Assembly (NCBI GenBank): GCA_036852015.1
Contig: JAANDG010000536.1
Location: forward strand, 37,940 to 101,939
DNA: 64,000 bases
Origin: Pelodera strongyloides
Taxonomy: Eukaryota > Nematoda > Chromadorea > Rhabditida > Rhabditidae
Direction of reading: 5' to 3'
Below are positions 5,106-51,586 of this stretch, piece after piece (position 1 is the first letter of the stretch; the number at the start of each line of letters is the position of its first letter). The position numbers and the translations under genes were made by a program. The notes below the pieces were generated by a model that saw only the letters and a program-made list of their open reading frames with translations, did no database searches and was not told where the DNA came from.

Positions 5106-5220
5106 AGGCCGAGATCCCTGTTCCATGCAATTCAAGAAGCATATTCGCAATTATAATAATTCCCTGTCAATGGCATCGATGTGTGCTCAACTTGATGTTC
5201 CCCGTGGCGCCGGTCCTTAT

Positions 5221-6240
5221 TTAGGAGGAATATAGTCAACAGAAACTAAGTTCTATCCCCGTGTTTGATATTGGTGTAGGTTTCAAAAGGAAAATAACAA
5301 AAGTGAAACCATTTCCTTCAGACAAATGTTTGCTTCTAACTTATATAGCCCAGCGAAACATTGCGACGTATCATCCAGGCACATTCCTTTTTTTTTAGGA
5401 TTTGAAATTTTTTCGATATTGTAGAGTCCAGCAAGTTGCAGACAATTTAGGAGAAATATAGTCAACAGAAACTAAGTTCTATCCCCGTGTTTGATATTGG
5501 TGTAGGTTTCAAAAGGAAAATAACAAAAGTGAAACCATTTCCTTCGAATAAATGTTTGCTTCTAACTTATATAGCCCAGCGAAATATTGCGACGGATCAT
5601 CCAGGCACATTCCTTTTTTTAGGTTTTGAAATTTTTTCGATATTGTAGAGTCCAGCAAGTTGCAGACAATTTAGGAGAAATATAGTCAACAGAAACTAAG
5701 TTCTATCCCCGTGTTTGATATTGGTGTAGATTTCAAAAGGAAAATAACAAAAGCGAAACCATTTCCTTCGGATAAATGTTTGCTTCTAACTTATATAGCC
5801 CAGCGAAACATTGCGACGTATCATCCAGGCACTTATTCCTTTTTTTTAGGATTTGAAATTTTTTCGATATTGTAGAGTCCAGCAAGTTGCAGACAATTTA
5901 GGAGGAATATAGTCAACAGAAACTAAGTTCTAACCCGTGTTCAATATTGGTATGGGTTTCAAAAAGAAAAAGAAAGACTGGAGACTCTTTGGATAGAAAT
6001 GTTTCCTCCTAACTTATATAGCCCAGAGAAACATTGCGGCGTATCAGCCACGCGATATTAAGCTGCTTTTAGGCTTTGGCAATTTTTTCGATGTCCTAGA
6101 GTAGAGCAAGTTGCAGACAATTTAGGAGAAATATAGTCAACAGAAACTAAGTTCTTTCCCCAGGAAACTATTCTTGCGAGAAAGAGTTGCCTCTACTTAT
6201 AGATATAGCCCAGTGAAACATAGCGACCATCAGCGAATAT
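5221..6240 (+). repeat. Tandem satellite, unit about 225 bp, about 4.5 copies
   Basis: Units start with TTAGGAGGAATATAGTCAAC or a close variant at 5221, 5447, 5671, 5898 and 6122, spacing 226, 224, 227 and 224 bp. Each carries AAGTTCTATCCCCGTGTTTG, TTATATAGCCCAGCGAAA and TTGTAGAGTCCAGCAAGTTGC. The first three are nearly identical, the fourth is diverged and the fifth is truncated near 6240. No coding signal is seen. Confidence 0.9.
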
Positions 6241-6559: not shown

Positions 6560-8210
6560 TTTTTGTCCATTTGTACATTTCACCTTTCACCACAGCACTA
6601 CCTTACACCATAGTACACCGTTGTGCACATTTGACCATGCACCACTTGACCGCCACGTTTAACCGAATTTGTATCATGTAGGGTGTCCAAGTATTGATTC
6701 TCCGAGCAATTTATGTGTAATCAAAAGGTTACCCCCAAGAAACCATCCACAACGGTTCTGATTAGCGTATGAATGCTATGTAGGAAGGGTTGGGGGAACG
6801 GCGTTCCTGTTTTGTATTTCTTGTTGGATATGTATACAACTTGTATTTTGCATAGTGTCTTTCGATTATTGTCCTAGGGTATTCGCCGTGCGGTGAGCTG
6901 TTTCATTTGACTTCCATATAGCTAGTCGCATATGAGTTGTAATGACTTCTATACGGGATGTCCTTTTTCTCGGAGCTTGTGAAGTTGTTGTGTATGTGAT
7001 ATTTTCAAAAGCATAAAGGTGGTATATTACGTAATGGTAGAAATCACATTAAACTTTGTTTTATTTTATAACGCAATTGCATTTTAGTACTGTCTTTTGG
7101 TTTATTCATACATTTACTTGGGGGAGTCCGTTCGTGTTTCCAAAGAGACGGCAACTTTGTTTTTTACAGTACCTTCTGCCATAACGTCGTTAGCGGTTTG
7201 AAGGATTAGAAAGTCTGCATCTCTTTTCTGGAATCGGAATGTAAGCTCTTACTTCTTACACGTGATCTTGAATGTACAGCCAACGTTCTTTGTCATTGTC
7301 ATTGCTTTTGTTGTTTGTTCGACTGGATATTTGACTTGCATAATAGTTATAGTACGCATGCCACGTTTCCGTACTGTTGTGAAGTGTTGATAGTTGGGAT
7401 GAAGTGTGTTATGTCACATTGTTGCTCAACAACGAGAAATTTATTACCAAATGGGTGTTTTATACAAGTGCTGTGGATACATACTGTATTTGAATATCGG
7501 CAAATTGTCATGTTTCAGAAGAAGCTACACATGAGATGATAGGACGAGTGTTTGTGCTATGATTGAACTATGTTCAGTTGTTCAGTCAGGATGATGCATC
7601 CTCTTCAAATGGCCCGTTCAATATTGTCGTCACTGGAACCCACATGTGTTCTATGTATGAATGGTGGGTATTTTCACTTATAAATTTGGTGCGATATTTG
7701 CCACATGTGCTCAAGTTATCTATTTCAAGATTTGCGAAATAATGTAAGCAGGAAGCAAGGTTCAGAAAAGTTTGTTGATGTCTTCTGGACGCAGGCAAAC
7801 TGCGTGCAGCATGCTTTTAATCTGTGTTTTTGTCTTAGCAGTTACTCGAATATATGATTAATTTTAGTTAGGATCAACCTGTAAGCAATATAAGGAATTG
7901 TAAATGTAGAGAGTGTAAAAATAAAATAAAAAGGTTCATTTCATTGTGTTTTACTGTGTTTATTATCCTCAAGGAGGCGGCATGTCAGATTTTCCATAAC
8001 TTTCTGTATGTTCTTGTTGAAGCAGTTGGCCTATCTGTATATGAGTAATGATCCAGACTTGGCCTAACTTGTGATAAATTGCGACTGTATAACTTGAGGC
8101 ATGACTTATTTGAAGTTAGAGTGTTATCAGCAAACACCATTGTAGCCACTAAGTAAGGAATTTGAAGAACGGCTTGTTTCAGTTCAAGGACAATATAAGT
8201 CGCTGTGCAC
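6560..8210. other. Non-coding stretch, G/T-rich plus strand
   Basis: No supportable coding exon is seen. One exon-like stretch begins after CATGTTTCAG near 7520 (AAGAAGCTACACATGAGATG), resembling TTTTTTCAG|AAGCTACATGAGATGAGAG near 3218. This suggests another relic of the family I duplication. An AATAAA-like AAATAAAATAAAAAGG lies near 7920. Confidence 0.35.
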
Positions 8211-15999: not shown

Positions 16000-17390
16000 T
16001 TGTGTATTTCTGTAGTTATTTTTGACAATGTCATCGGGCCAGTATTTTGCTTCATTTTCATAATTTAGGTGTTGTGATGTGTTCGCTATCGTCTCCCGTT
16101 CCGGATACTTCAATTCAAGCTACAAATAACCATTTAATTTTGTGTATTTGTATTGTTTAGAAAGCTGAGAGATAATTTTATGCGTTTGTTTGTAAATGTA
16201 TTATAAACGGCGTAGTATCCAGTGGAGGAAAGTTGAAGATCAAAGTTCTAAGCTGACGGTATACCGGTTTAATTGCTTGATCAAGTAATGTTGCGTAGTT
16301 ATGTTTTGGGAAGTTTATGAGATGTGATTGTTGGTACGAACAGAAAAATAATGTAAGATCTTTTCAAGATTGTCGCTTCAGGTTCAGAAGTTTACGGATT
16401 TTTATCTTCAATAAAGATTTTTTTATTGAGTGAGCTTATGTGATTCAAGGTAGAGAAATTGCCGAAAGTTTATAATTTATCGCAGTGGCCTACAGAGACT
16501 ATAAACGAGTTTCAGGAGGAGAGTGAAGCTCCTTGTAAGTTGGGTTATTGATTTGTGCTGATTTTGTTAAAGCGTATTGATCGCACTGTGCGGTAGAGTT
16601 GATTCGTATTTTCTCATTGAATTTCGTCCGCATTGTGATTTTCTGTGAACGTCAGTCAGTGTAAGTAGTAACTTGGCACGCTAGTCAGAAAGTACGTTGC
16701 CGCCCAGAATCATTAGGTACGTATTTATTGACGGCTACCGGGCTAGTATTGTCGCATTGTCTTCAATTACACATGTTTTCCAAAGTTGATGATTGTTATT
16801 TGTGAAGGTGCATGTTCGATCTCCAAGTTATATGGAGCAGGAGATCTAAGCCCGTGAATGATTGCATGTGAATAAAGTATTTATCAAAACAAATTTACAA
16901 TAAGTTACTAGACAGTATGCGAGCGAGGTGTGTCACGAATGGTGCTGCTGATGAGTCGAAGTAAACGGAATTGTTGCGAAGTTTCCTAAACGCCTCATGT
17001 TGACAGTAATAACAAATGAAATCACGGTTGTAGTATATTATCAATTCTTAGTATAGTATTCTTATTCTTGTTGAAATGAGGCGGAATTTTGCTTGCGGGG
17101 TACTTTGTAAATTGTTGGTTTAGGGACCTCAAACATGGAAGAGCATTGAGAATTGCAGCTGTTGAACAATGGGGAATGCCTATCCGATTTAAAATGTATA
17201 TGATTTAAGTCGTAAACGAATAGAAATGTTTGACTCTAAGCAAAAACATTGGTGGACACAAGCTTCGTTTGGTGGAAATCCGGCAAATTTTACCATATAA
17301 ATGCCAACATGTGCACAAATTCACTCATTTATACGTTATTTCGTGATAAACAGTTGTATATTTCATTGTTTAGTACAAAACAATAAACAA
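16000..17390. other. Intergenic or intronic stretch without a clear gene
   Basis: No supportable exon is seen. A candidate poly(A) signal AATAAA lies near 16410 within CTTCAATAAAGATTTTTTTATTGAGTG. Composition remains A+T-rich with excess T and G on the plus strand. Confidence 0.3.
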
Positions 17391-17439
17391 TATTTCAAAT
17401 TATGTTGAATATTCGGTACTTTTGGAAATTCTTTTGTCG

Positions 17440-17600
17440 CGGGACGATACAGACCGAGCGCCCCTGTGTAAAAGATGCAATATCGATCGGGCCACCCAGG
17501 TGCAGACAGACCCCCGTGAAGCGACGCTTTGGCGGAAAAAGCAGACAGCTTACGTCACTGACTGATGGATTTTGTTGTTTTGCTTCGTATTTTGCTTTGT
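17440..17600 (+). promoter_or_regulatory. GC-richer candidate transcription start region
   Basis: A GC-rich island (GGGACGATACAGACCGAGCG, then CACCCAGGTGCAGACAGACC) contrasts with AT-rich flanks. It ends with TTACGTCA at 17550-17557, an ATF/CRE-type site, next to ACTGACTGATGG. It lies upstream of a run of exon candidates from 18344 to 24018. TSS activity is inferred only from composition and position. Confidence 0.25.
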
Positions 17601-18343
17601 TTTACGTTGTAGATGCTTTATTTAGCGAATTATGATTGTATGAAGCTTATTGTCCCGAAAACTAGGATTATTTGCGTTATTTTGACCCGAAAATTGCTCG
17701 TAAACGAAAATTTTGCGGCTCAAAGAGCTTTTTTGCCTTCACTCTCCTTGTATGCTGCTTTTTTGGACTCCAGAACCTATCCACGAAGTTTTGACGCTTC
17801 TGGCGAGTAAATTGAGCCGTTGAGTTGTCATTTTTGACCCAAAAACAGCTTTTGGTGGATTTTTTTTGCTCTGGAAACCCTTCTTTGTCGTTTATTACTT
17901 CTGTTTTGCTTCCTTTAAGCCCTTAACATGTTTGACGCTTCTATAATTCGTTTTTTTGTGACCAAAATCTGCGTTTAAAGCATGCTTAGACTTGGCTCTG
18001 GATTCTGCCTTTGTTCCCCGTTTTGTGCCACTTAACTTCCTAGCTTCCAGCCAAACAAATTTGACGCTTTAGATTCGTTTGACTCATAGTCTGAAGCATT
18101 GTTTGCCTAAAAACTGCGTTAGAGTGAGTATATGCCCCTCAAACGCTTTATAACGAACTGATTCTGCTGGATAGGTTTCCCTCATTTGTCCCTTCGCGAC
18201 GAGCTCTATGCCGGTTTTAGATGCGTTGCTGAATTTAGCCTTATGTTTTGCTTCTATTTTCTATTTTTGGCGTTGGAATGATTGGCTAATGGCTATCTAT
18301 TTTACCAGTTTGTCGTGCTTTCTCATTTCTTATTTTCTTTCAG

Positions 18344-21019: not shown

Positions 21020-21189
21020 GTGAGAAAGACTTTATTTTGTTTTGGTTCGATTTGCAAGTTTCAGTTTCGGTATATGTACACGATGCACGATATTGTCGTC
21101 TCCCGACATGATTATTCAGTGACCGTTTGCTCGTGCACGGGTTATTGTCGGGTTATCTCTTGGGTGAATATGTCGGTTATGGCCTACAA

Positions 21190-21507
21190 CGTGAAACTTG
21201 GCGACATCGCCGCGCCAAAAATGAAGGTCCGCCACAGCGGTGCCGCGCACTCCGCCTAAGGTGCGCCGGTGTGCGCGAATGGTAAATGGCGCATTTACGG
21301 CGGTCTCAGCGCGCATCTGGAGCGCACCTACGGCGGAATTGCAGCGGAACCTACGAAAAGTTCGCCGCAGGTTCGCCGAACTGAGTTGAATATCCTTTTG
21401 CGCACCTGTGGCGCGCCTACCGCGCGCTCTAGGCGCAGTGCGCCGCCCCGCTGTGGCGGACCCTCATTTTTGGCGCGGCGATGTCCTCAAGTTTCCCCAG
21501 TGTATGT
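21190..21507. mobile_element. GC-rich inverted-repeat element G, copy 1
   Basis: The left arm GAAACTTGGCGACATCGCCG.. continues through CGCCAAAAATGAAGGTCCGC. The right arm is its inverse (GCGGACCCTCATTTTTGGCG, then CGGCGATGTCCTCAAGTTTC), giving terminal inverted repeats of about 50 bp. The interior is a dense GCGC/GGCGCACCT mosaic. The arms have no transposase between them. Related copies are at 29555 and 30538. It is a foldback-type MITE of unknown superfamily. Confidence 0.7.
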
Positions 21508-21860
21508 GCGACCTTGCGCATCTTACCTGCTGGAGGTATAGGTGCGGTGCCCGCCTCCCCAACTTCATGCTTATGGTTGCTAGTTGCTATTACACTTACT
21601 GTTGTGTCTTGCTTTCTGTAACCATCTGTATGAGTGGGAGTGCTTGTGTGTGATGCATTACGGATTTTTTTTGCATACTTTGTACTTTCCAAATTGCCTT
21701 CTCCGCTCAACCCTCCACTATGCTTATGCCGTAAATCGTAACCACGGGATAAGCGTGGTCTGCTTTGTTGTGAATCAATATGTTTCACATTCGTCATTCT
21801 AAAATGCGAAGATGAAACATACTGTGCTATGGGCTAGAGTAGGGTTGATAAAGCACTATT

Positions 21861-21942
21861 GTACCACGTTTGTGAAACGTACATAGTGCATTTCAAAAAC
21901 GTGGTACAAGACCATACCAACATATGATATGTTGGTATGGTC
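21861..21942. repeat. Nested palindromes
   Basis: TGTACCACGTTT near 21862 pairs with AAACGTGGTACA ending near 21908. Directly after it, 21910-21942 is a perfect 16-bp inverted repeat around a single central G (GACCATACCAACATAT and its inverse). The two hairpins abut. No gene is nearby; it may be the edge of a small foldback element. Confidence 0.85.
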
Positions 21943-22087
21943 GGTGCCCTTCCGTCACACATTTTGCATATCATATATTGAGACCCAAGTATCAACGATA
22001 TGTTTCACAAACTAGGTACATTGGATATGAGTGCTACCATTATCTATCATATGACTAGTTCCGGTTATCATTTTTCTTTCTTTTCAG

Positions 22088-23082: not shown

Positions 23083-23918
23083 GTAAGAAATATTTTCGAC
23101 CCAGCTTGATTCAGAATGGTTGCTTCATATGCTGCGAATTAAAGCGCGCCACCACCGCTACAGTACCCCTGGAGTGCGACAAAGGTGGGCGATCTGCGGC
23201 ACTCATTCCAAAAAGTGTGCCACAGGTGCGCCATCTGAAAATTAACACTTTTGCTACTCCGGCGCATTCTAGTGGGAGTGCGCTAGGCAGTCCCTCTCCT
23301 TTTTAGGAAGAATGTTTCTCATCTGTAATATTTTATTTTCCTTCTTCTTTTCATAGGAGGAGGCTTCGTATGGCTTAATTTGCTATTGCATTTTGGTTTC
23401 AATGTGTTACGGGTTACGGTATGCATACGCCGCGGGGGTAATACACGTGACGTGATATAGTTGATCCACTTAATGAAGTTGTTCGATGTCTATTTTATGA
23501 AATGAAAGCTTTCTTTTGCAAGGCTGCCAGCTTTTTGCGTATGGTTATTGAGATAGTGAAGACATGAAGGGAATAAAGTAACACTGTCTTCGGTCTTATG
23601 CTATGCTAATGCTCCTACTCAACCCTAATGTATGATCAACCATAATGTCCTAATGTAGTCAACCATAATGTTTGCAATAACATAGAGGGCTGTGTTTGAT
23701 CTGATGAATTCTCGAACGGTTATAGACTAGCTGGGAATAGACATGCGGCATATGCGTTCCACAAGGGCGAGGCCGCGGCGCCGCACCACCTCTACAGTGC
23801 GCGGGGTGTGCGCCGCGAGTACGCGAGACGTGGACAGTGCTCATAGTAGCATATGTGTTTGTGAGCAGCAAATCTAGAATTAAGAAAACTTACGTCTATC
23901 ACTATGTTCAATTTTCAG

Positions 23919-24018
23919 CTGTTCAATGAGTCAACAATCGATGTGACCACAATCGCGACGGCCATATTCGATTCGATTTGCAACTTCGATTCAATGACAC
24001 ACTAGGACAAGGAATACG
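23919..24018 (+). other. Exon candidate (23.9 kb)
   Basis: The acceptor is CAATTTTCAG and the donor ATACG|GTAGGTATG. It contains GATTCGATTTGCAACTTCGA, internally repetitive. Stops are present. It may be the last spliced exon before the structured AT-rich region, whose nearest downstream AATAAA on this strand is at 28151. Confidence 0.3.
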
Positions 24019-24091
24019 GTAGGTATGGGCGAATCAGGTCGGTTCCTCTTTTCGAGTCTTTCTTTTAGGTAGTTAGGTAGGTGAGATGACG

Positions 24092-24314
24092 TTCCCTCCC
24101 CCGAGGTGTACGGAGGGAAATCACTTTCGGCCAGGCCCGCGGTCTTTAGTCCTCGCCGTGATGGCGTTATCGCCCGGCGCTATCAGCCCAGATCGGTGGT
24201 CCGGGCCTGAAAACCTGAGGCTACGTGGAAATCTGTGCCTGGGTTTTCTCTCACTGGTAGGTCGCCGCTTTGTATATGGAATAGTTGTAATACGGCGATT
24301 TTTACTGGTGAGAG
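24092..24314 (+). ncRNA. Cluster of stable hairpins
   Basis: Three folds lie side by side. TTCCCTCC (24092) pairs with GGAGGGAA (24112). CAGGCCCG (24132) pairs with CGGGCCTG (24202) and encloses CGCCG/CGGCG (24154/24175). CTCTCACTGGTAG (24248) pairs with the strand ending GTGAGAG (24314) through 13 contiguous pairs including G-U wobbles, then TCGCCG/CGGCGA. Wobble pairs favour an RNA over a DNA palindrome. No known RNA family is recognised. Confidence 0.4.
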
Positions 24315-24625
24315 GGAAGCTGGGCACGTAAGGTTAGAGGTTAAGGCGCGTCCGTGTGTTAGAAGTAGCTGCTACATTTGTATAAGCCCTATGTCTTCTC
24401 ACTCGTGTACATATTATTCTTAACTGTGACATGCCTTTTTGATATATTTTGTATTATCATTTGTACTTATACATATCTTAGTTTTACCACCTTGCTATAC
24501 AGCTGTACATTGTACATATATTTTTTGATATACATTTTGCATTACACTCTTGATATACACAGTTTTACCTTCTTTAGTTTTATACGTTTCTGTACATACT
24601 TCTTGATATATTACTTATACATACA

Positions 24626-24730
24626 CCTCTGTGATATAACCTTCTGTGATATAATCTTCTGTGATATAACCTTCTGTGATATAATCTTCTGTGATATTTC
24701 TGTGATAATTACTTTACTGTGATACCCTTT
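24626..24730 (+). repeat. 15-bp tandem repeat, CTTCTGTGATATAAY
   Basis: About five direct repeats with alternating final C or T, then decayed TTCTGTGATA units. The hydrophobic open frame across it is a product of the T-rich composition. Confidence 0.85.
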
Positions 24731-25081
24731 CTTTCTGTGATACCTTATTAGTATTATATTTAGCATTTTTCTTATTGTACATACTGTAGTTTTGTGAATT
24801 TATCGTATGCGTCAATGTGTATTTTGCATAACGACGAATTCACATTATTACAGTATGCTTTTTTCTTCTTCTTGCGCTTTACGCAAGTTTTCTTTGTGTT
24901 AACCCCTTTCCATTGGGGTAAAGGTTACCAGAAGAGCAGTCTTCGGCACTGCTGTGTAGCCTGGGATTTCTATACTTACATTTGGTTCTTTTGGTGTTTG
25001 AAGAGTTACCAGAACCAATGTAACGTATGTATTGTCCGTTCCGTTTGTTGCTAAGTTTGTGTAACCGTTCTTAAGGATGTG

Positions 25082-25164
25082 ATGGCTAGGCTTTTCTGGT
25101 TCACACCGCAAATGTGGACCAGAACCTGTCTTGTAGATGTTTATATCAGGTCCAGCTTAGCCAT
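25082..25164 (+). ncRNA. Three-way-junction RNA element J, copy 1
   Basis: The outer stem ATGGCTAGGC (25082-25091) pairs with GCTTAGCCAT (25155-25164). Hairpin 1 is TCTGGTTCACA (25095-25105), a 7-nt loop, and TGTGGACCAGA (25113-25123). Hairpin 2 starts at the very next base: ACCTG (25124-25128), a loop containing TAGATGTTTATA, and CAGGT (25147-25151). Copies 2 and 3 have the same architecture with different paired bases. The RNA class is unknown; the strand was chosen from wobble pairs and PUF sites, and the fold is formally possible on either strand. Confidence 0.5.
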
Positions 25165-25389
25165 TTGTGTTCTTATTGATTGTAGTTACACTCACCGGGC
25201 ACAAACAAGGACAGAATACCTGTACATAATACTATTAATACATAACCTGTACATACTAATAATATTCATTCTACTGTTGATACATAATAACATTCAATCT
25301 TTGAGGGTGACTTTTTTTGGTTGAAGACCAAAGTTTTGTTTTTGTGTGGCTTGCTCGCATATGGTTTGGTTAGTCTCCTTGCTAGGCGG

Positions 25390-25471
25390 TGCGTGGCTGA
25401 CTTTTCTGGCACGTATTACTAGTACGGGCCAGACCTGCGTTCTAGATGATTATAGCAGGGTTCTCCACGCA
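25390..25471 (+). ncRNA. Three-way-junction RNA element J, copy 2
   Basis: The outer stem is TGCGTGG (25390-25396) with CCACGCA (25465-25471). Hairpin 1 is TCTGGCACGTA (25405-25415), a 7-nt loop, TACGGGCCAGA (25423-25433). Hairpin 2 again starts without a gap: CCTGC (25434-25438), a loop with TAGATGATTATA, GCAGG (25455-25459). Compared with copy 1, both strands of the stems have changed together while the TAGATG.TTATA loop is kept. Confidence 0.5.
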
Positions 25472-25774
25472 TTTGCTTGTCAATTGACTTCCCATTCCTT
25501 AAAAGCAAGCTATGCTTAGTGAAACAAAGTCTACTCATTATTGATACTTTAAGCACAGAACAACATTATGATTTGAATGTGGGTTTCGAGTTTGCAGTAA
25601 GCAACATACTCATACACACTATATGTAAATACAGTTTAAACCTTATATAGATGGAAAAGAATGCTTTGAATGACCATATATACATATATATTCGATACCA
25701 ATACATATACTCATGTACTATACACACACATTAAAATTTGAAAACTCAATTTGCTATACTACGGTTTACATGAA

Positions 25775-25861
25775 GGTTGACTAAGTTCTTTGTTGAGTCC
25801 CGTCACTACTCAACAAAGACGTCTATATAGATTGTTTAAGACGCCTACTTAGTCAATCCTT
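25775..25861 (+). ncRNA. Three-way-junction RNA element J, copy 3
   Basis: The outer stem AGGTTGACTAAGT (25775-25787) pairs with ACTTAGTCAATCCT (25848-25861) with a single bulge. Hairpin 1 is TCTTTGTTGAGT (25788-25799), a 9-nt loop, and ACTCAACAAAGA (25809-25820), perfect over 12 bp. Hairpin 2 follows directly: CGTCT (25821-25825), a loop with TAGATTGTTTA, AGACG (25840-25844). The stem sequences are unrelated to copies 1 and 2 but the layout is the same. Confidence 0.5.
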
Positions 25862-26207
25862 TTATGTATCCTGTTCTGTAGTTAGCCAGCCTCTCTCAGT
25901 ACTTAGATCTGGTCTGATTGACCGATCGTTAAAAAGTCCTGATTTTGGTCGAATGTCTAGTTCTTGAAACAATTCAATGAGAAGATGAAAGAAGTGAGCG
26001 GTTGGAAAGAGTCCTTGTAGGCCTTTTCAATTCGAAACGCTCGGAATAGTGGGTGGTAGGGCGGGTTTCGACGTAGCTTCGGCTACAAGAGAAACATATG
26101 ACATTATGCACCCACTCAAGTCCTGGTACGAGTGCGGTTGCATACTGTCAAGAAATAAAATAACAATGAGTACCACTAAGTGGTCTCATGCGTTGATTGA
26201 GTTGATT

Positions 26208-27058
26208 CATTTAAAAACAATTAGGGCGGCCGGCCGGCTATCAGCTTGTCCGTCCAGGTCGAACTTGGTGACCTTGGACGCGAACAAGACGGCCCGCCGT
26301 CGAATACTATCAAGCTATGATGCTTGTTTTGAGATACTGCAATAGAACACATTTAAAAACAATTAGGGCGGCCGGCCGGCTATCTGCTTGTCCGTCCAGG
26401 TCGAACTTGGTGACCTTGGACGCGAACAAGACGGCCCGCCGTCGAATACTATCAAGCTATGATGCTTGTTTTGAGACACTGCAATAGAACACATTTAAAA
26501 ACAATTAGGGCGGCCGGCCGGCTATCTGCTTGTCCGTCCAGGTCGAACTTGGTGACCTTGGACGCGAACAAGACGGCCCGCCGTCGAATACTATCAAGCT
26601 ATGATGCTTGTTTTGAGACACTACAATAGAATACATTTAAAAACAATTAGGGCGGCCGGCCGGCTATCAGCTTGTCCGTCCAGGTCGAACTTGGTGACCT
26701 TGGACGCGAACAAGACGGCCCGCCGTCGAATACTATCAAGCTATGATGCTTGTTTTGAGATACTGCAATAGAACACATTTAAAAACAATTAGGGCGGCCG
26801 GCCGGCTATCTGCTTGTCCGTCCAGGTCGAACTTGGTGACCTTGGACGCGAACAAGACGGCCCGCCGTCGAATACTATCAAGCTATGATGCTTGTTTTGA
26901 GACACTGCAATAGAACACATTTAAAAACAATTAGGGCGGCCGGCCGGCTATCTGCTTGTCCGTCCAGGTCGAACTTGGTGACCTTGGACGCGAACAAGAC
27001 GGCCCGCCGTCGAATACTATCAAGCTATGATGCTTGTTTTGAGATACTTAGTTGAATA
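26208..27058 (+). repeat. 142-bp tandem array, six copies
   Basis: Units begin at CATTTAAAAACAATTAGGGC: 26208, 26350, 26492, 26634, 26776 and 26918, spacing exactly 142 bp (141 to the next, degenerate unit). They are nearly identical, differing at a few sites (CAGCTTG/CTGCTTG, GATACT/GACACT). Each contains GGCCGGCCGG, a hairpin CTTGT..GTCC.AGGTC / GACCTTGGAC..ACAAG, GACGGCCCGCCGTC and CAAGCTATGATGCTTG. Copy similarity implies recent expansion or homogenisation. Not CRISPR: there are no unique spacers. Confidence 0.95.
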
Positions 27059-27190
27059 CATTTAAAAATAAACGGGGCGTCCGGCCGACTATCTGCTTGG
27101 TCGCCTGAGATCGTGGTGACGATCTCGGCGCACCAAGACGGCCCGGCGCCGATTTTCCGCCATTTATAACGCTTTCGGCGCGTTATAAAA
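27059..27190 (+). repeat. Degenerate seventh unit of the 142-bp array
   Basis: It begins CATTTAAAAATAAACGGGGC. The hairpin is retained with altered sequence on both arms: CTTGGTCGCCTGAGATCG (27096) against CGATCTCGGCGCACCAAG (to 27137). The following AGACGGCCCG is kept. It ends with another hairpin, TTTATAACGC/GCGTTATAAA around 27162-27188. The sequence then leaves the repeat. Confidence 0.7.
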
Positions 27191-27359
27191 GATATTGCAT
27201 ATGAGAAAGATTCTTGATTTTCTCCTCTAGATGCGCTTTTTAACGTTGGCGCTCGGTACTGCTTGCTTTTGTTGTTTCCCTGTTGATATTTTGCTCTTTT
27301 TTCAAAGAGCGCGCGCACATATATATTTTTTCAGGTTATATGGTTCGTTTTCAGTTGAA

Positions 27360-28160
27360 AGGTGTGTGAGAGAGAGAGTGTAAAGTTGTTGTTTTTAATG
27401 ATTTGCACGATTTTTGTTGATGATATTTAACTTTTTAAAGGTTTTCAAGTTGGTCTTATGTAGTCTTTGTACACTTTGTAGCAATAGGATGTAGGTTAGA
27501 TTTTTATGTAAGGTACCCCTTCCCCCCTGGTCCTGCGCCCTATCTTGAGGCACCATCCAACTCCACGGTAAGCCATGTAATTTCTGGAATCTTTGTAGTT
27601 TTGAGTCGTTGGCCTTAATATATTCGGTTTTGATCAGAATTTCCTGTTTTTCGGTACTTCCAGCGTTTCTATTGTTATTTATAATGGTTTCGGCCACAGT
27701 GACTGTGTTCACGTGTATTTGGTAGTTCTTTTCTGAGGTGGTATTTTTCTGTAGTGTAGTTATTTTTTTATAAGTAATACCAAATTTGTCGCTGTCAGTT
27801 TGGCAGATAGGCTTGATGCCGTTATATGACAAAATGTTGGTATTATCTGTTATTAGTTATTTGGTTTCTTTTCTCTTTTGGTTGAGAGTCATTTCCTATA
27901 GTGGTATTATTTGGCATTTACATTTTTTTTTAACTTTATTTTAAGTTAGGTTGATAGGTTTACTCATTTACTCCCGGTTCCCAGTTTATTAGTTGTCCAT
28001 ATTGGACTATTTCACCTGTCCATATTGGATTAGTTATATTAGTTAGGTATTATGATTTATCTTTATTTAAGCTACTGGTAATCTTGGCGGAGGCCCTTTA
28101 GCACCTTTTCATTATTATGTTTGTCGTATATCCGTTTTTTGTGGTTCTTTAATAAAATAA
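27360..28160 (+). other. AT-rich stretch ending in a candidate poly(A) signal
   Basis: AATAAA at 28151-28156, within CTTTAATAAAATAAAAC, could end a plus-strand transcript covering the structured region. A 145-codon open frame runs on the minus strand (27395-27832) but is Asn/Lys/Ile-rich and unrecognised, without a good start context or related copies. No firm gene. Confidence 0.3.
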
Positions 28161-29554
28161 AACAAAAAAATATAGTCGTTGTTTGTTTGTATTGTGCTGA
28201 AATATTGGAAAAAAAGCCTTGTCTAATGATGTCAAGGAATGGAATCGGCCTATGGTATCAAGAAGAATGAGGAAGAAAGCAGACAGATGTTCTGCGAAGT
28301 CTTTAATTGATAACAGGGAGTCTTTTTCTCAGTTTTATGTTTTGCTTTTGTGTCTTTATGTCAGTTTTCAATGGTATTATGGTCTTATTGGGGAGTAGCG
28401 CTCATAGATGACTGTCCGCTATTTAATAACGTAGTTTGCTCATGTATGTGGGTTGGTATTGGTTCTTTAGTTTCGTTGGAAATCGTACTCTTGCCAGGGC
28501 AAGCTATGGACAAACTAAATTATTAGTGGGTAAGCAGTTAAGATACGCAAGGAGCTGACAGGAATATTTCCCGACAAAAACTCTGTATTCTCGCGCTTAA
28601 TTAACGTTTTTGCTGTTTTACGACCATTACGGCGTATCTAGTTGTTCAGCTAATTGCAGGGGTAGCGTAGGTTCAGGTTTAGTGGCGGAAAACTCGTTGT
28701 TTTGGCATAAATTAAAGATCGAATATGTATCCAGAATATTTCCTGATAAAAGCCCTATTCATCTATGTACGGGCGCGTGAGTGAATTTAGTGTCCTCTGG
28801 ATAACGCCTGTGTAGAAAGGCAAGGGTTTTCAGGGCTTCATCAGTTAGTACAAGGAAAACAGCGCGTGGAAATCCACAATATTATAGTTCTATTTGGTCT
28901 GTTTCCAATTACCAACTAGTATTCGCTCAATATTGACGGATTTAGTGTATTCCGCTAGAAAGTTTTGTTTACTCGCGCAAGCGTTAGCTACAGTACGCGT
29001 GACTTTCCGAAGTACCTAATTTGAGTGAGGAAAGACTTGCGTTGGCTTTATTATGTGTGTTAGTGATCTATGGTAGCGTAGTTTTCTGGTACGGGTTAAT
29101 TAGCTGCCATGTGGTCGTCACTACCGCTCGGTAAGCTAGGGTTGAGGAAGGCCAATCATGGACAACTAAAAACGGTGCCGTAATTTTGTGGTATAGATGT
29201 CGAAACTTGTTCCAAAATTGTCTCCTACAATAGATCTATGTTCGCACTAGTAGCAATCAGTTCGTTTGCAGGTAAAGTGTCAAACAAAGCGCACAACAAT
29301 GTCTTTTTGAACTTTAGTATTTAGTACGTTACGTACTTGGCTTGGATGTGGTGGTTTAGTTAGCATTTTTAGCTTCATTTTACATCCTTGGTAATGTAGA
29401 TGGATGGTACAGTCGTCAGTAGCTGCATTGCGTTCCTGACTACGCGAGTTGGAATTGCGTCACTCGGCCAGGTATTGAAAAAAAAAAGATTTTTAAGTGC
29501 ATGAAGAACAGAAGAACTTGGCGAACTGAAATTTGGCCACTATTTAAAAAGATT

Positions 29555-29823
29555 GGGGTGAAACTTGGCCACATCGCGGCTCCGAAAATGACGGTTTGCC
29601 ACAGGTGCGCACCCTGTCGGGGGTGCGTGAAAGTTAATGGCGCACCTACTGCGGTCTCAATACGCACCTGCCGCGCACCTTACAATAAGTGCGTCGCGCG
29701 TATACCAGTAGTTAAAGTAGTTAAATGTCTTTTCGCGCTTCTGTGGCCCACAAACCGTGGCGCGCCGCCCCGCCGTGGCGGTCTCTCGTTTTTGGCGCCG
29801 TTGTCGTCAAGTATCCCCTTTGT
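29555..29823. mobile_element. GC-rich inverted-repeat element G, copy 2
   Basis: The left arm GAAACTTGGCCACATCGCGG continues with CCGAAAATGACGGT. The right arm has GGTCTCTCGTTTTTGGCGCC then GTCGTCAAGTATCCCC, the inverse with mismatches. The interior is rich in GCGCACCT. It is more decayed than the copy at 21190 and embedded in the 28.5-33.2 kb duplication. Confidence 0.6.
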
Positions 29824-30537: not shown

Positions 30538-30806
30538 ACTGAAACTTGGCAACACTGCCGCGACAAAAATGAGACTCGCACTCCGCCTAGGATGCGCCGG
30601 GATCTGCGAATGTCAATGGCGCAAATCCGATAGTATCTTGGCGCAGCTGGACCGCACACATGTCGCTGCTGACGCGATTCCTACAAAAAGTGTGCCGCGC
30701 GTATGTCAACTGGAATTAAATGCCCCGCACCTGTAGCTCACTTGCCGACGCCCCGCTGTGGCGGTCTCTCATTTTTGGCGAGGCGATTTCGCCAAGTGTC
30801 CCTAGT
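30538..30806. mobile_element. GC-rich inverted-repeat element G, copy 3
   Basis: The left arm is GAAACTTGGCAACACTGCCG then GACAAAAATGAGACTCGC; the right arm is GTGGCGGTCTCTCATTTTTG then GCGAGGCGATTTCGCCAAGT. It sits at the same place in its tandem unit as copy 2, so it was probably present before the duplication. Confidence 0.6.
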
Positions 30807-51178: not shown

Positions 51179-51346
51179 AACAAATTATTGCGTCTTTTCG
51201 CTCTTGTTTCCTATTTGAGTAACAAATTATTGCGTCTTTTCGCTCTTGTTTCCTATTTGAGTAACAAATTATTGCGTCTTTTCGCTCTTGTTTCCTATTT
51301 GAGTAACAAATTATTGCGTCTTTTCGCTCTTGTTTCCTATTTGAGT
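51179..51346 (+). repeat. 42-bp tandem repeat, four identical copies
   Basis: The unit begins AACAAATTATTGCGTCTTTT and ends TCCTATTTGAGT; starts at 51179, 51221, 51263 and 51305. The copies are identical. As 42 is a multiple of three, both strands show repetitive open frames, which are artefacts. It directly abuts the foldback at 51347. Confidence 0.95.
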
Positions 51347-51586
51347 AGTATTGCAAGCTTCGTGACAACTCAGTCACGGTAGACACGAAACCTTCTTTTT
51401 GACGATGTGCTGAAACATTAGAGATTGAAAGTTTGAAAATTGAAGAAAGAAAGAAAAAGAAAATTGAAAGAAGGAAAAAAGTTTTTTTTTTTGCTTTAAA
51501 ACTTTCAATATCTAATGTTTCAGCACATCTTCAAAAAGAAGGTTTCGTGTCTACCGTGACTGAGTTGTCACGAAGCTTGCAATACT
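51347..51586. mobile_element. Foldback element with about 88-bp arms
   Basis: The left arm 51347-51434 (AGTATTGCAAGCTTCGTGAC ... ATTGAAAGTTT) is repeated inverted at 51498-51586 (AAACTTTCAAT ... GTCACGAAGCTTGCAATACT) with only a few mismatches. The spacer of about 60 bp is purine-rich (GAAAGAAAGAAAAAG) with a T-run. Transcribed, it would form a long double-stranded hairpin. No transposase. Confidence 0.85.

What the first reader, a model, noticed from the sequence alone, without database searches (positions are those of the whole stretch)
25082..25861. Three copies of a three-way-junction fold with compensating base changes
Seen directly: three elements within 800 bp have the same plan: an outer stem, hairpin 1, hairpin 2 starting with no gap after hairpin 1, and a 3-5 nt linker to the closing strand. 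Hairpin 2 loops keep TAGATG.TTATA or TAGATTGTTTA. Stem sequences differ on both sides together (outer ATGGCTAGGC/GCTTAGCCAT, TGCGTGG/CCACGCA, AGGTTGACTAAGT/ACTTAGTCAATCCT). Such covariation is the classic sign of selection on RNA structure. I know of no named family with this plan. An alternative is a foldback transposon end family.
Basis: partly seen in the sequence, partly recalled or inferred. Interest (0 to 1): 0.75.

Follow-up and report, generated by a model that had tools for sequence, protein, structure and literature searches.

The report
Nematode noncoding RNA with folded repeats
The three folds lie inside what looks like a long noncoding RNA gene, found in three diverged copies in a roundworm genome, that keeps several RNA folds and many repeated short motifs, possibly to gather regulatory RNA-binding proteins.

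Summary
The folds are real: A (25082-25164), B (25390-25471) and C (25774-25860) fold as three-way junctions on the + strand better than all 200 shuffles each. They are not three copies of one element: A and B are homologous, C has no demonstrable relation to them. They are a small part of a larger thing. The genome is a rhabditid nematode (COX1 95% identical to Litoditis). The region is a noncoding-RNA-like locus found in three diverged copies. All three keep a splice acceptor, a structured 5' domain, a U-rich stretch with UGUACAUA and CUGUGAUA motifs, element B, a second structured domain, a GC-rich hairpin array and AAUAAA. Fold-keeping base changes occur between copies. UGUACAUA (the Pumilio/PUF-8 site) and CUGUGAUA lead the words over-represented in all three, and the CUGUGAUA stretch and hairpin array were amplified separately in different copies. 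Best reading: a polyadenylated lncRNA family acting as a multivalent protein scaffold, perhaps for PUF proteins as NORAD does in mammals. Transcription and protein binding are untested.

The parts
23919..28175 (+). Presumed last exon of the lncRNA (start and end inferred)
   Evidence: TTTTCAG acceptor ending at 23918 also present in C516 and C562, read by eye; AATAAA near the end in all three; no transcript data
24085..24360 (+). 5' structured domain, 86-87% identical between loci
   Evidence: Identity; RNAalifold consensus 85 pairs, 1 with change on both sides; windows z 1.44, -0.37, -2.94, -1.98, -8.18 across it, so only its second half beats column shuffles
24350..25330 (+). U-rich stretch with UGUACAUA (6) and CUGUGAUA (8) sites
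   Evidence: tandem array 24628-24697, period 15
24780..24857 (+). Conserved long hairpin
   Evidence: single fold z -7.2; three-locus window z -9.42
25082..25164 (+). Three-way junction A
   Evidence: homologous to B; fold kept in C516 (z -2.8), lost in C562
25390..25471 (+). Three-way junction B
   Evidence: fold kept in C516 (z -3.7) and C562 (z -5.2) with changed outer stem; three-locus window z -6.34
25774..25860 (+). Three-way junction C, not demonstrably related to A/B
   Evidence: present in C516 at 90% identity, no other copy found
26050..26200 (+). Second structured domain
   Evidence: three-locus windows z -5.54 and -7.13; fold on four rows
26224..27149 (+). Array of 7 GC-rich hairpins, period about 142
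   Evidence: units in three loci aligned and counted; tree
28151..28156 (+). AATAAA polyadenylation signal
   Evidence: same place in C516 and C562

Best explanation
The elements belong to a long noncoding RNA gene on the + strand of a rhabditid nematode, present as three diverged paralogous loci. It is most likely a spliced, polyadenylated RNA whose last exon (about 23.92-28.17 kb) is a multivalent protein-binding scaffold: conserved folds, a reiterated hairpin array, and an open U-rich stretch with many UGUACAUA and CUGUGAUA sites. The likeliest ligands of the U-rich stretch are PUF proteins (UGUACAUA fits the 8-nt PUF-8/Pumilio site; 10 of 19 CUGUGAUA sites, by eye, fit the FBF site UGUNNNAU with an upstream C), so the RNA may hold PUF proteins away from their mRNA targets. 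A and B would bind another factor through the kept UAGAUG loop. Shown: folds, their conservation, fold-preserving changes, three loci, motif over-representation. Inferred: transcription, splicing, polyadenylation, protein binding, decoy action. I put about 0.85 on a structured noncoding RNA family and about 0.35 on PUF proteins as ligands.
For: Three colinear loci. Fold-preserving changes: array 99.6% of cells paired against 93.2% in shuffles and at most 42% in slid versions, 15 cells changed on both sides against 5.0, 0 of 500 as high; A/B hairpins 6 pairs changed on both sides against 2.7, 3 of 500 as high; B outer stem differs between loci and still pairs. 9 of 57 three-locus windows have z below -3. 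UGUANAUA on the + strand 7, 4 and 3 times against 0.45, 0.35 and 0.30 expected. Unbiased word ranking puts UCUGUGAU/CUGUGAUA and UGUACAUA on top. CUGUGAUA stretch tandem-amplified with periods 15, 85 and 21 in the three loci; different hairpin subtypes amplified in C536 and C516. AATAAA in the same place in all three. PUF repeats are encoded in the genome on contigs C158, C42 and C293. NORAD as precedent; FBF binds three C. elegans lincRNAs.
Against: No RNA data. UGUNNNAU as such is not enriched over the whole RNA (8 against 6.31, 6 against 6.50, 5 against 4.91); UGURNAU is enriched in two loci but not in C562 (4 against 2.28, 202 of 1000). 9 of 19 CUGUGAUA sites do not fit the FBF site, so the motif may serve another protein. 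One unrelated stretch (L023, - strand) has 13 UGUANAUA in 1 kb. Median z over the 57 windows is only -0.54, and the first half of the 5' domain is not better than column shuffles. In one search the number of pairs changed on both sides (5 against 3.4, 45 of 500) and of pair types (9 against 8.4, 233 of 500) is not exceptional. A's fold is lost in C562. No comparison with other species was possible.
Confidence: 0.45

Rival explanations
1. Structured lncRNA scaffold for proteins other than PUF (for example a CUGUGAUA-binding protein and a hairpin-binding protein); the PUF-like sites are incidental or secondary.
For: CUGUGAUA is the more over-represented motif and 9 of its 19 sites do not fit UGUNNNAU (by eye); UGUNNNAU is not enriched over the whole RNA; the hairpin array and A/B carry no UGUANAUA (positions).
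Against: UGUACAUA is independently over-represented, on the + strand, in all three loci.
Confidence: 0.35
2. Processed structured RNA: the locus is a precursor from which hairpins are cut out (microRNA, small RNA or snoRNA-like products).
For: Several separate conserved hairpins, such as 24780-24857 and the array.
Against: No Rfam match at gathering score in the window; low-threshold hits are far below gathering (for example mir-2941 17.8 bits against 60); A/B hairpin 1 has only about 11-12 pairs.
Confidence: 0.1
3. Conserved untranslated or coding part of a protein gene.
For: An 84-aa frame at 24077-24331 is open in C536 and C516.
Against: It holds two stops in C562; its protein identity (79% and 74%) is below the DNA identity (87% and 86%); another frame over the same stretch is also open; longest frame of the + strand in 24-28.2 kb is 114 aa.
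Confidence: 0.06
4. Mobile foldback or MITE-like element family.
For: Inverted repeats; C is present in two loci and absent from the third.
Against: Found only in colinear paralogous loci, not dispersed; no terminal repeats at the ends of the duplicated unit beyond a 25-nt match (C536) and members of a dispersed repeat (C562).
Confidence: 0.03

Closest known systems
NORAD (mammalian lncRNA; PMC4947167, abstract and passages seen)
   Same: Long noncoding RNA with reiterated parts, several Pumilio-type sites, U-rich stretches and stem-loops with structure-preserving changes
   Different: NORAD's sites lie within its 12 repeat units of about 300 nt and number at least 17 functional ones; here the UGUANAUA sites (7, 4, 3) lie outside the hairpin array; three paralogs; no sequence comparison with NORAD was made
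C. elegans lincRNAs bound by FBF: linc-4, linc-7, linc-29 (PMC4911911, passages seen)
   Same: Nematode long noncoding RNAs with PUF sites; linc-7 has several
   Different: Their sequences were not compared here; the passages seen mention no conserved folds or hairpin arrays
Xist A-repeat (recalled, no call)
   Same: Array of GC-rich hairpins separated by A/U-rich linkers in a long noncoding RNA
   Different: No homology tested; different organism; no evidence of chromatin function

Membership tests
   A-B yes; A-C and B-C no; model of A/B misses C
NORAD-like PUF decoy | Several UGUANAUA-type sites above expectation on the sense strand | tested here: met
   7, 4, 3 against 0.45, 0.35, 0.30
NORAD-like PUF decoy | Sites lie inside the structured repeat units | tested here: not met
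   Site positions 24406-25624, array 26224-27149
NORAD-like PUF decoy | Stem-loops with structure-preserving changes | tested here: met
NORAD-like PUF decoy | Abundant cytoplasmic noncoding transcript that binds PUF proteins and changes their targets | not testable with these tools
   no RNA or protein data
NORAD family by descent | Sequence homology to NORAD | not tested
   NORAD sequence not fetched
Foldback transposon | Dispersed copies in the genome | tested here: not met
   three colinear loci only; C in two
Rfam families | Match at or above gathering score | tested here: not met
   0 matches in the window
microRNA precursor | Small RNAs from the arms | not testable with these tools
   no small-RNA data

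The most novel reading that the evidence does not exclude
A nematode lineage evolved, independently of mammals, a family of long noncoding RNAs that sequester PUF proteins: three paralogs that each amplified their own PUF-like sites and structured hairpins, a natural dosage series for a PUF decoy in animals where PUF proteins control germline stem cells.
Probability: 0.25. Interest if true: 0.8.

Novelty: new variant of a known kind. Interest (0 to 1): 0.58.

Why it matters
Conserved, covarying structure is rarely detectable in lncRNAs (said of NORAD's own hairpins in PMC4947167, passage). A nematode family with three paralogs, reiterated structured modules and PUF-type sites would make decoy or scaffold action testable by genetics in a short-lived animal, and would show whether multivalent PUF-binding RNAs arise more than once.

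Tried and rejected
Three-copy reading of A, B and C: rejected for C. The MAFFT alignment of A, B and C together misplaces the stems (by eye) and was not used for counts; outer stems were compared by single folds. Alignment A4 holds 5 rows: the C562 copy of A (hairpin 1 lost) and the C elements were left out before counting. In one search windows with over 25% gaps were skipped. Weak R1 matches outside the family (best L023:7744-7832, 16.5 bits, E 0.0028; L017 14.3 bits) were not followed; L011-L018 were fetched because they carry the loop pattern with one mismatch, so they are a biased set. Low-threshold Rfam hits rejected as far below gathering. A 21-base word of the 5' domain: 0 stretches in viral and in prokaryote contigs, as expected for a nematode gene. 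Paper searches listed no nematode lncRNA of this kind; I saw listings (capped) and passages of three papers only, so this does not show that none is in print. Species not determined; other nematode genomes are not held, so no orthologs were compared.

Full report
What the window is. It lies in a 159.9 Mb assembly of 1171 contigs. The mitochondrial contig encodes a COX1 95% identical to a Litoditis cluster, 92% to a Rhabditida cluster and 91% to one named for Caenorhabditis briggsae, so the organism is a rhabditid nematode; the species was not determined. The + strand has T>A in 32 of 32 2-kb bins and G>C in 27 of 32, as in intron-rich transcribed sequence; since it holds for the whole window it is weak evidence for this locus.

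The observation. A, B and C fold on the + strand as outer stem, hairpin 1, hairpin 2 with no or one base between the hairpins; each beats 200 of 200 shuffles. The - strand folds less well for A and B, equally for C. A and B are homologous by sequence (0 of 2000 shuffles reach their score); C is not demonstrably related to either (195 and 1739 of 2000). A covariance model of five A/B rows lists those five rows, the degenerate C562 copy of A weakly (10.7 bits, E 0.32) and not C.

Paralogous loci. The stretch 24200-26200 matches itself (C536), C516 and C562; the 5' domain gives the same three loci; 25990-26345 gives 15 places, all in the three. A 17-base core of the hairpin array has 30 matches with up to one mismatch: 17 exact, all in the three loci, and 13 with one mismatch elsewhere, against 17 for the reversed control pattern. 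The tool warns that its counts are lower bounds. blastn shows colinear homology from about 16.4 kb (C562) or from its contig start at 19.6 kb (C516) to about 28.4 and 28.7 kb, with patchy, repeat-rich matches to 31.2 kb. Identity peaks at 17.3-18.0 kb (C562 only), 24.0-24.4 kb and 26.0-26.2 kb.

Anatomy of the presumed last exon. A TTTTCAG acceptor ending at 23918 is present in all three loci (by eye), and AATAAA at 28151 has counterparts in C516 and C562. Between them lie: a structured 5' domain (85 consensus pairs, 1 with change on both sides since it hardly varies), a U-rich stretch, a hairpin at 24780-24857, A, B, C, a second structured domain, and an array of 7 hairpins (7 in C516, 3 in C562).

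Structure tests. In the three-way alignment of 23900-26215, 9 of 57 windows have z below -3 and 15 below -2; the median is -0.54. Structure is thus in islands: second part of the 5' domain (-8.2), hairpin 24.8 kb (-9.4), B (-6.3), second domain (-5.5, -7.1); the first part of the 5' domain (up to +1.4) is not better than shuffled columns, A is marginal (-2.1) and C near -0.7 because C562 lacks it. Array, 17 units, 11 distinct: 99.6% of cells pair (93.2% shuffled, at most 42% slid), 15 cells with both sides changed against 5.0, covariation score 0.241 against 0.122, 0 of 500 shuffles as high; but pairs with change on both sides (5 against 3.4, 45 of 500) and pair types (9 against 8.4, 233 of 500) are ordinary. 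A/B hairpins, 5 rows: 6 pairs with both sides changed against 2.7 (3 of 500), 0-1 in slid versions. These controls do not remove relatedness, as the tool states. Outer stem of B from the junction outward: C516 UA UA CG GU CG UA UG GC UG GC UA GC; C562 UA UA CG AU GU CG UG GC GC UA GU UG GC UA GU; C536 CG AU GU GC GC UA GC CG GC UA GU GU. B folds in C516 and C562 with z -3.7 and -5.2; A in C516 z -2.8 (1 of 200 shuffles as good), in C562 z -0.46 (57 of 200); C in C516 z -6.6.

Motifs. Over W 24350-25385 and the matching stretches, only 10 7-mers and 7 8-mers occur at least twice in all three loci; the leading ones are words of UUCUGUGAUA and UGUACAUAC, and one further weak word is UUUGGUU. UGUANAUA occurs 7, 4 and 3 times on the + strand and 1, 0 and 1 on the - strand; sites 24406 and 24776 align in all three loci. 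CUGUGAUA occurs 8, 7 and 4 times, of which 5, 4 and 1 are followed by U and so fit UGUNNNAU (by eye). UGUANAUA is the PUF-8/Pumilio site and UGURNNAUA the FBF site (PMC6351103, passages); FBF sites in vivo are UGUNNNAU, often with an upstream C, with a 7-mer variant UGURNAU (PMC4911911, passages). Against a PUF reading: UGUNNNAU is not enriched over the whole RNA (8 against 6.31, 6 against 6.50, 5 against 4.91); with upstream C it is enriched only in W (7 against 2.50, 26 of 1000); UGURNAU is enriched in W and C516 (12 against 3.09, 10 against 3.15) but not in C562 (4 against 2.28). In 864 overlapping windows of other held sequence 858 have two or fewer UGUANAUA... one stretch, on the - strand of L023, has 13 in 1 kb and accounts for the high windows. 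The genome encodes PUF repeats on contigs C158, C42 and C293.

Evolution. The CUGUGAUA stretch is tandem-amplified with period 15 in C536, 85 in C516 and 21 in C562. In the tree of array units, subtypes are shared between loci; C536 has six units of one subtype, C516 five of another, and the last unit of all three loci groups together (support 84/97); 2 of 8 inner branches are strongly supported and 5 are weak. Separate gains of the same parts suggest that their number matters (inference).

Coding. An 84-aa frame over the 5' domain is open in C536 and C516, has two stops in C562, and its protein identity (79%, 74%) is below the DNA identity (87%, 86%). Gaps in the alignment are often not multiples of three.

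Mechanism. I favour a scaffold with many binding sites, PUF proteins being the best candidates; NORAD is the working model. It is not filed as a NORAD member: the sites are not inside the repeat units, and homology was not tested. FBF is known to bind three C. elegans lincRNAs, so PUF binding of nematode lncRNAs is not new in itself; a conserved structured paralog family would be.

Noticed in passing
window 17300-18000: Stretch 73-88% identical per 100 bp to C562, upstream of the presumed first exons: candidate promoter or first exon of the lncRNA.
   Followed up: partly
window 21851-21950: Near-perfect adjacent inverted repeats, strongest fold of the window on both strands (E about -54).
   Followed up: no
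window 21184-21485, 29410-29738, 30540-30780: Dispersed GC-rich repeats with similar ends in both orientations, MITE-like by eye; also matched in C516.
   Followed up: no
window 5219-6161 and 51179-51347: Tandem arrays of a 224-nt unit (4.2 copies) and of a 42-nt unit (4 copies, 100% match).
   Followed up: no
L023 about 7650 (- strand) and 7744-7832 (+): Cluster of 13 UGUANAUA in 1 kb next to a weak match to the A/B model (16.5 bits, E 0.0028).
   Followed up: no
G000 contig C892: Three full-length COX1 copies on one contig in both orientations: probably concatenated mitochondrial reads in the assembly.
   Followed up: no
L019 3360-3967: 76-nt unit repeated 8 times (99% match) just upstream of the last exon in C516 only.
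   Followed up: no
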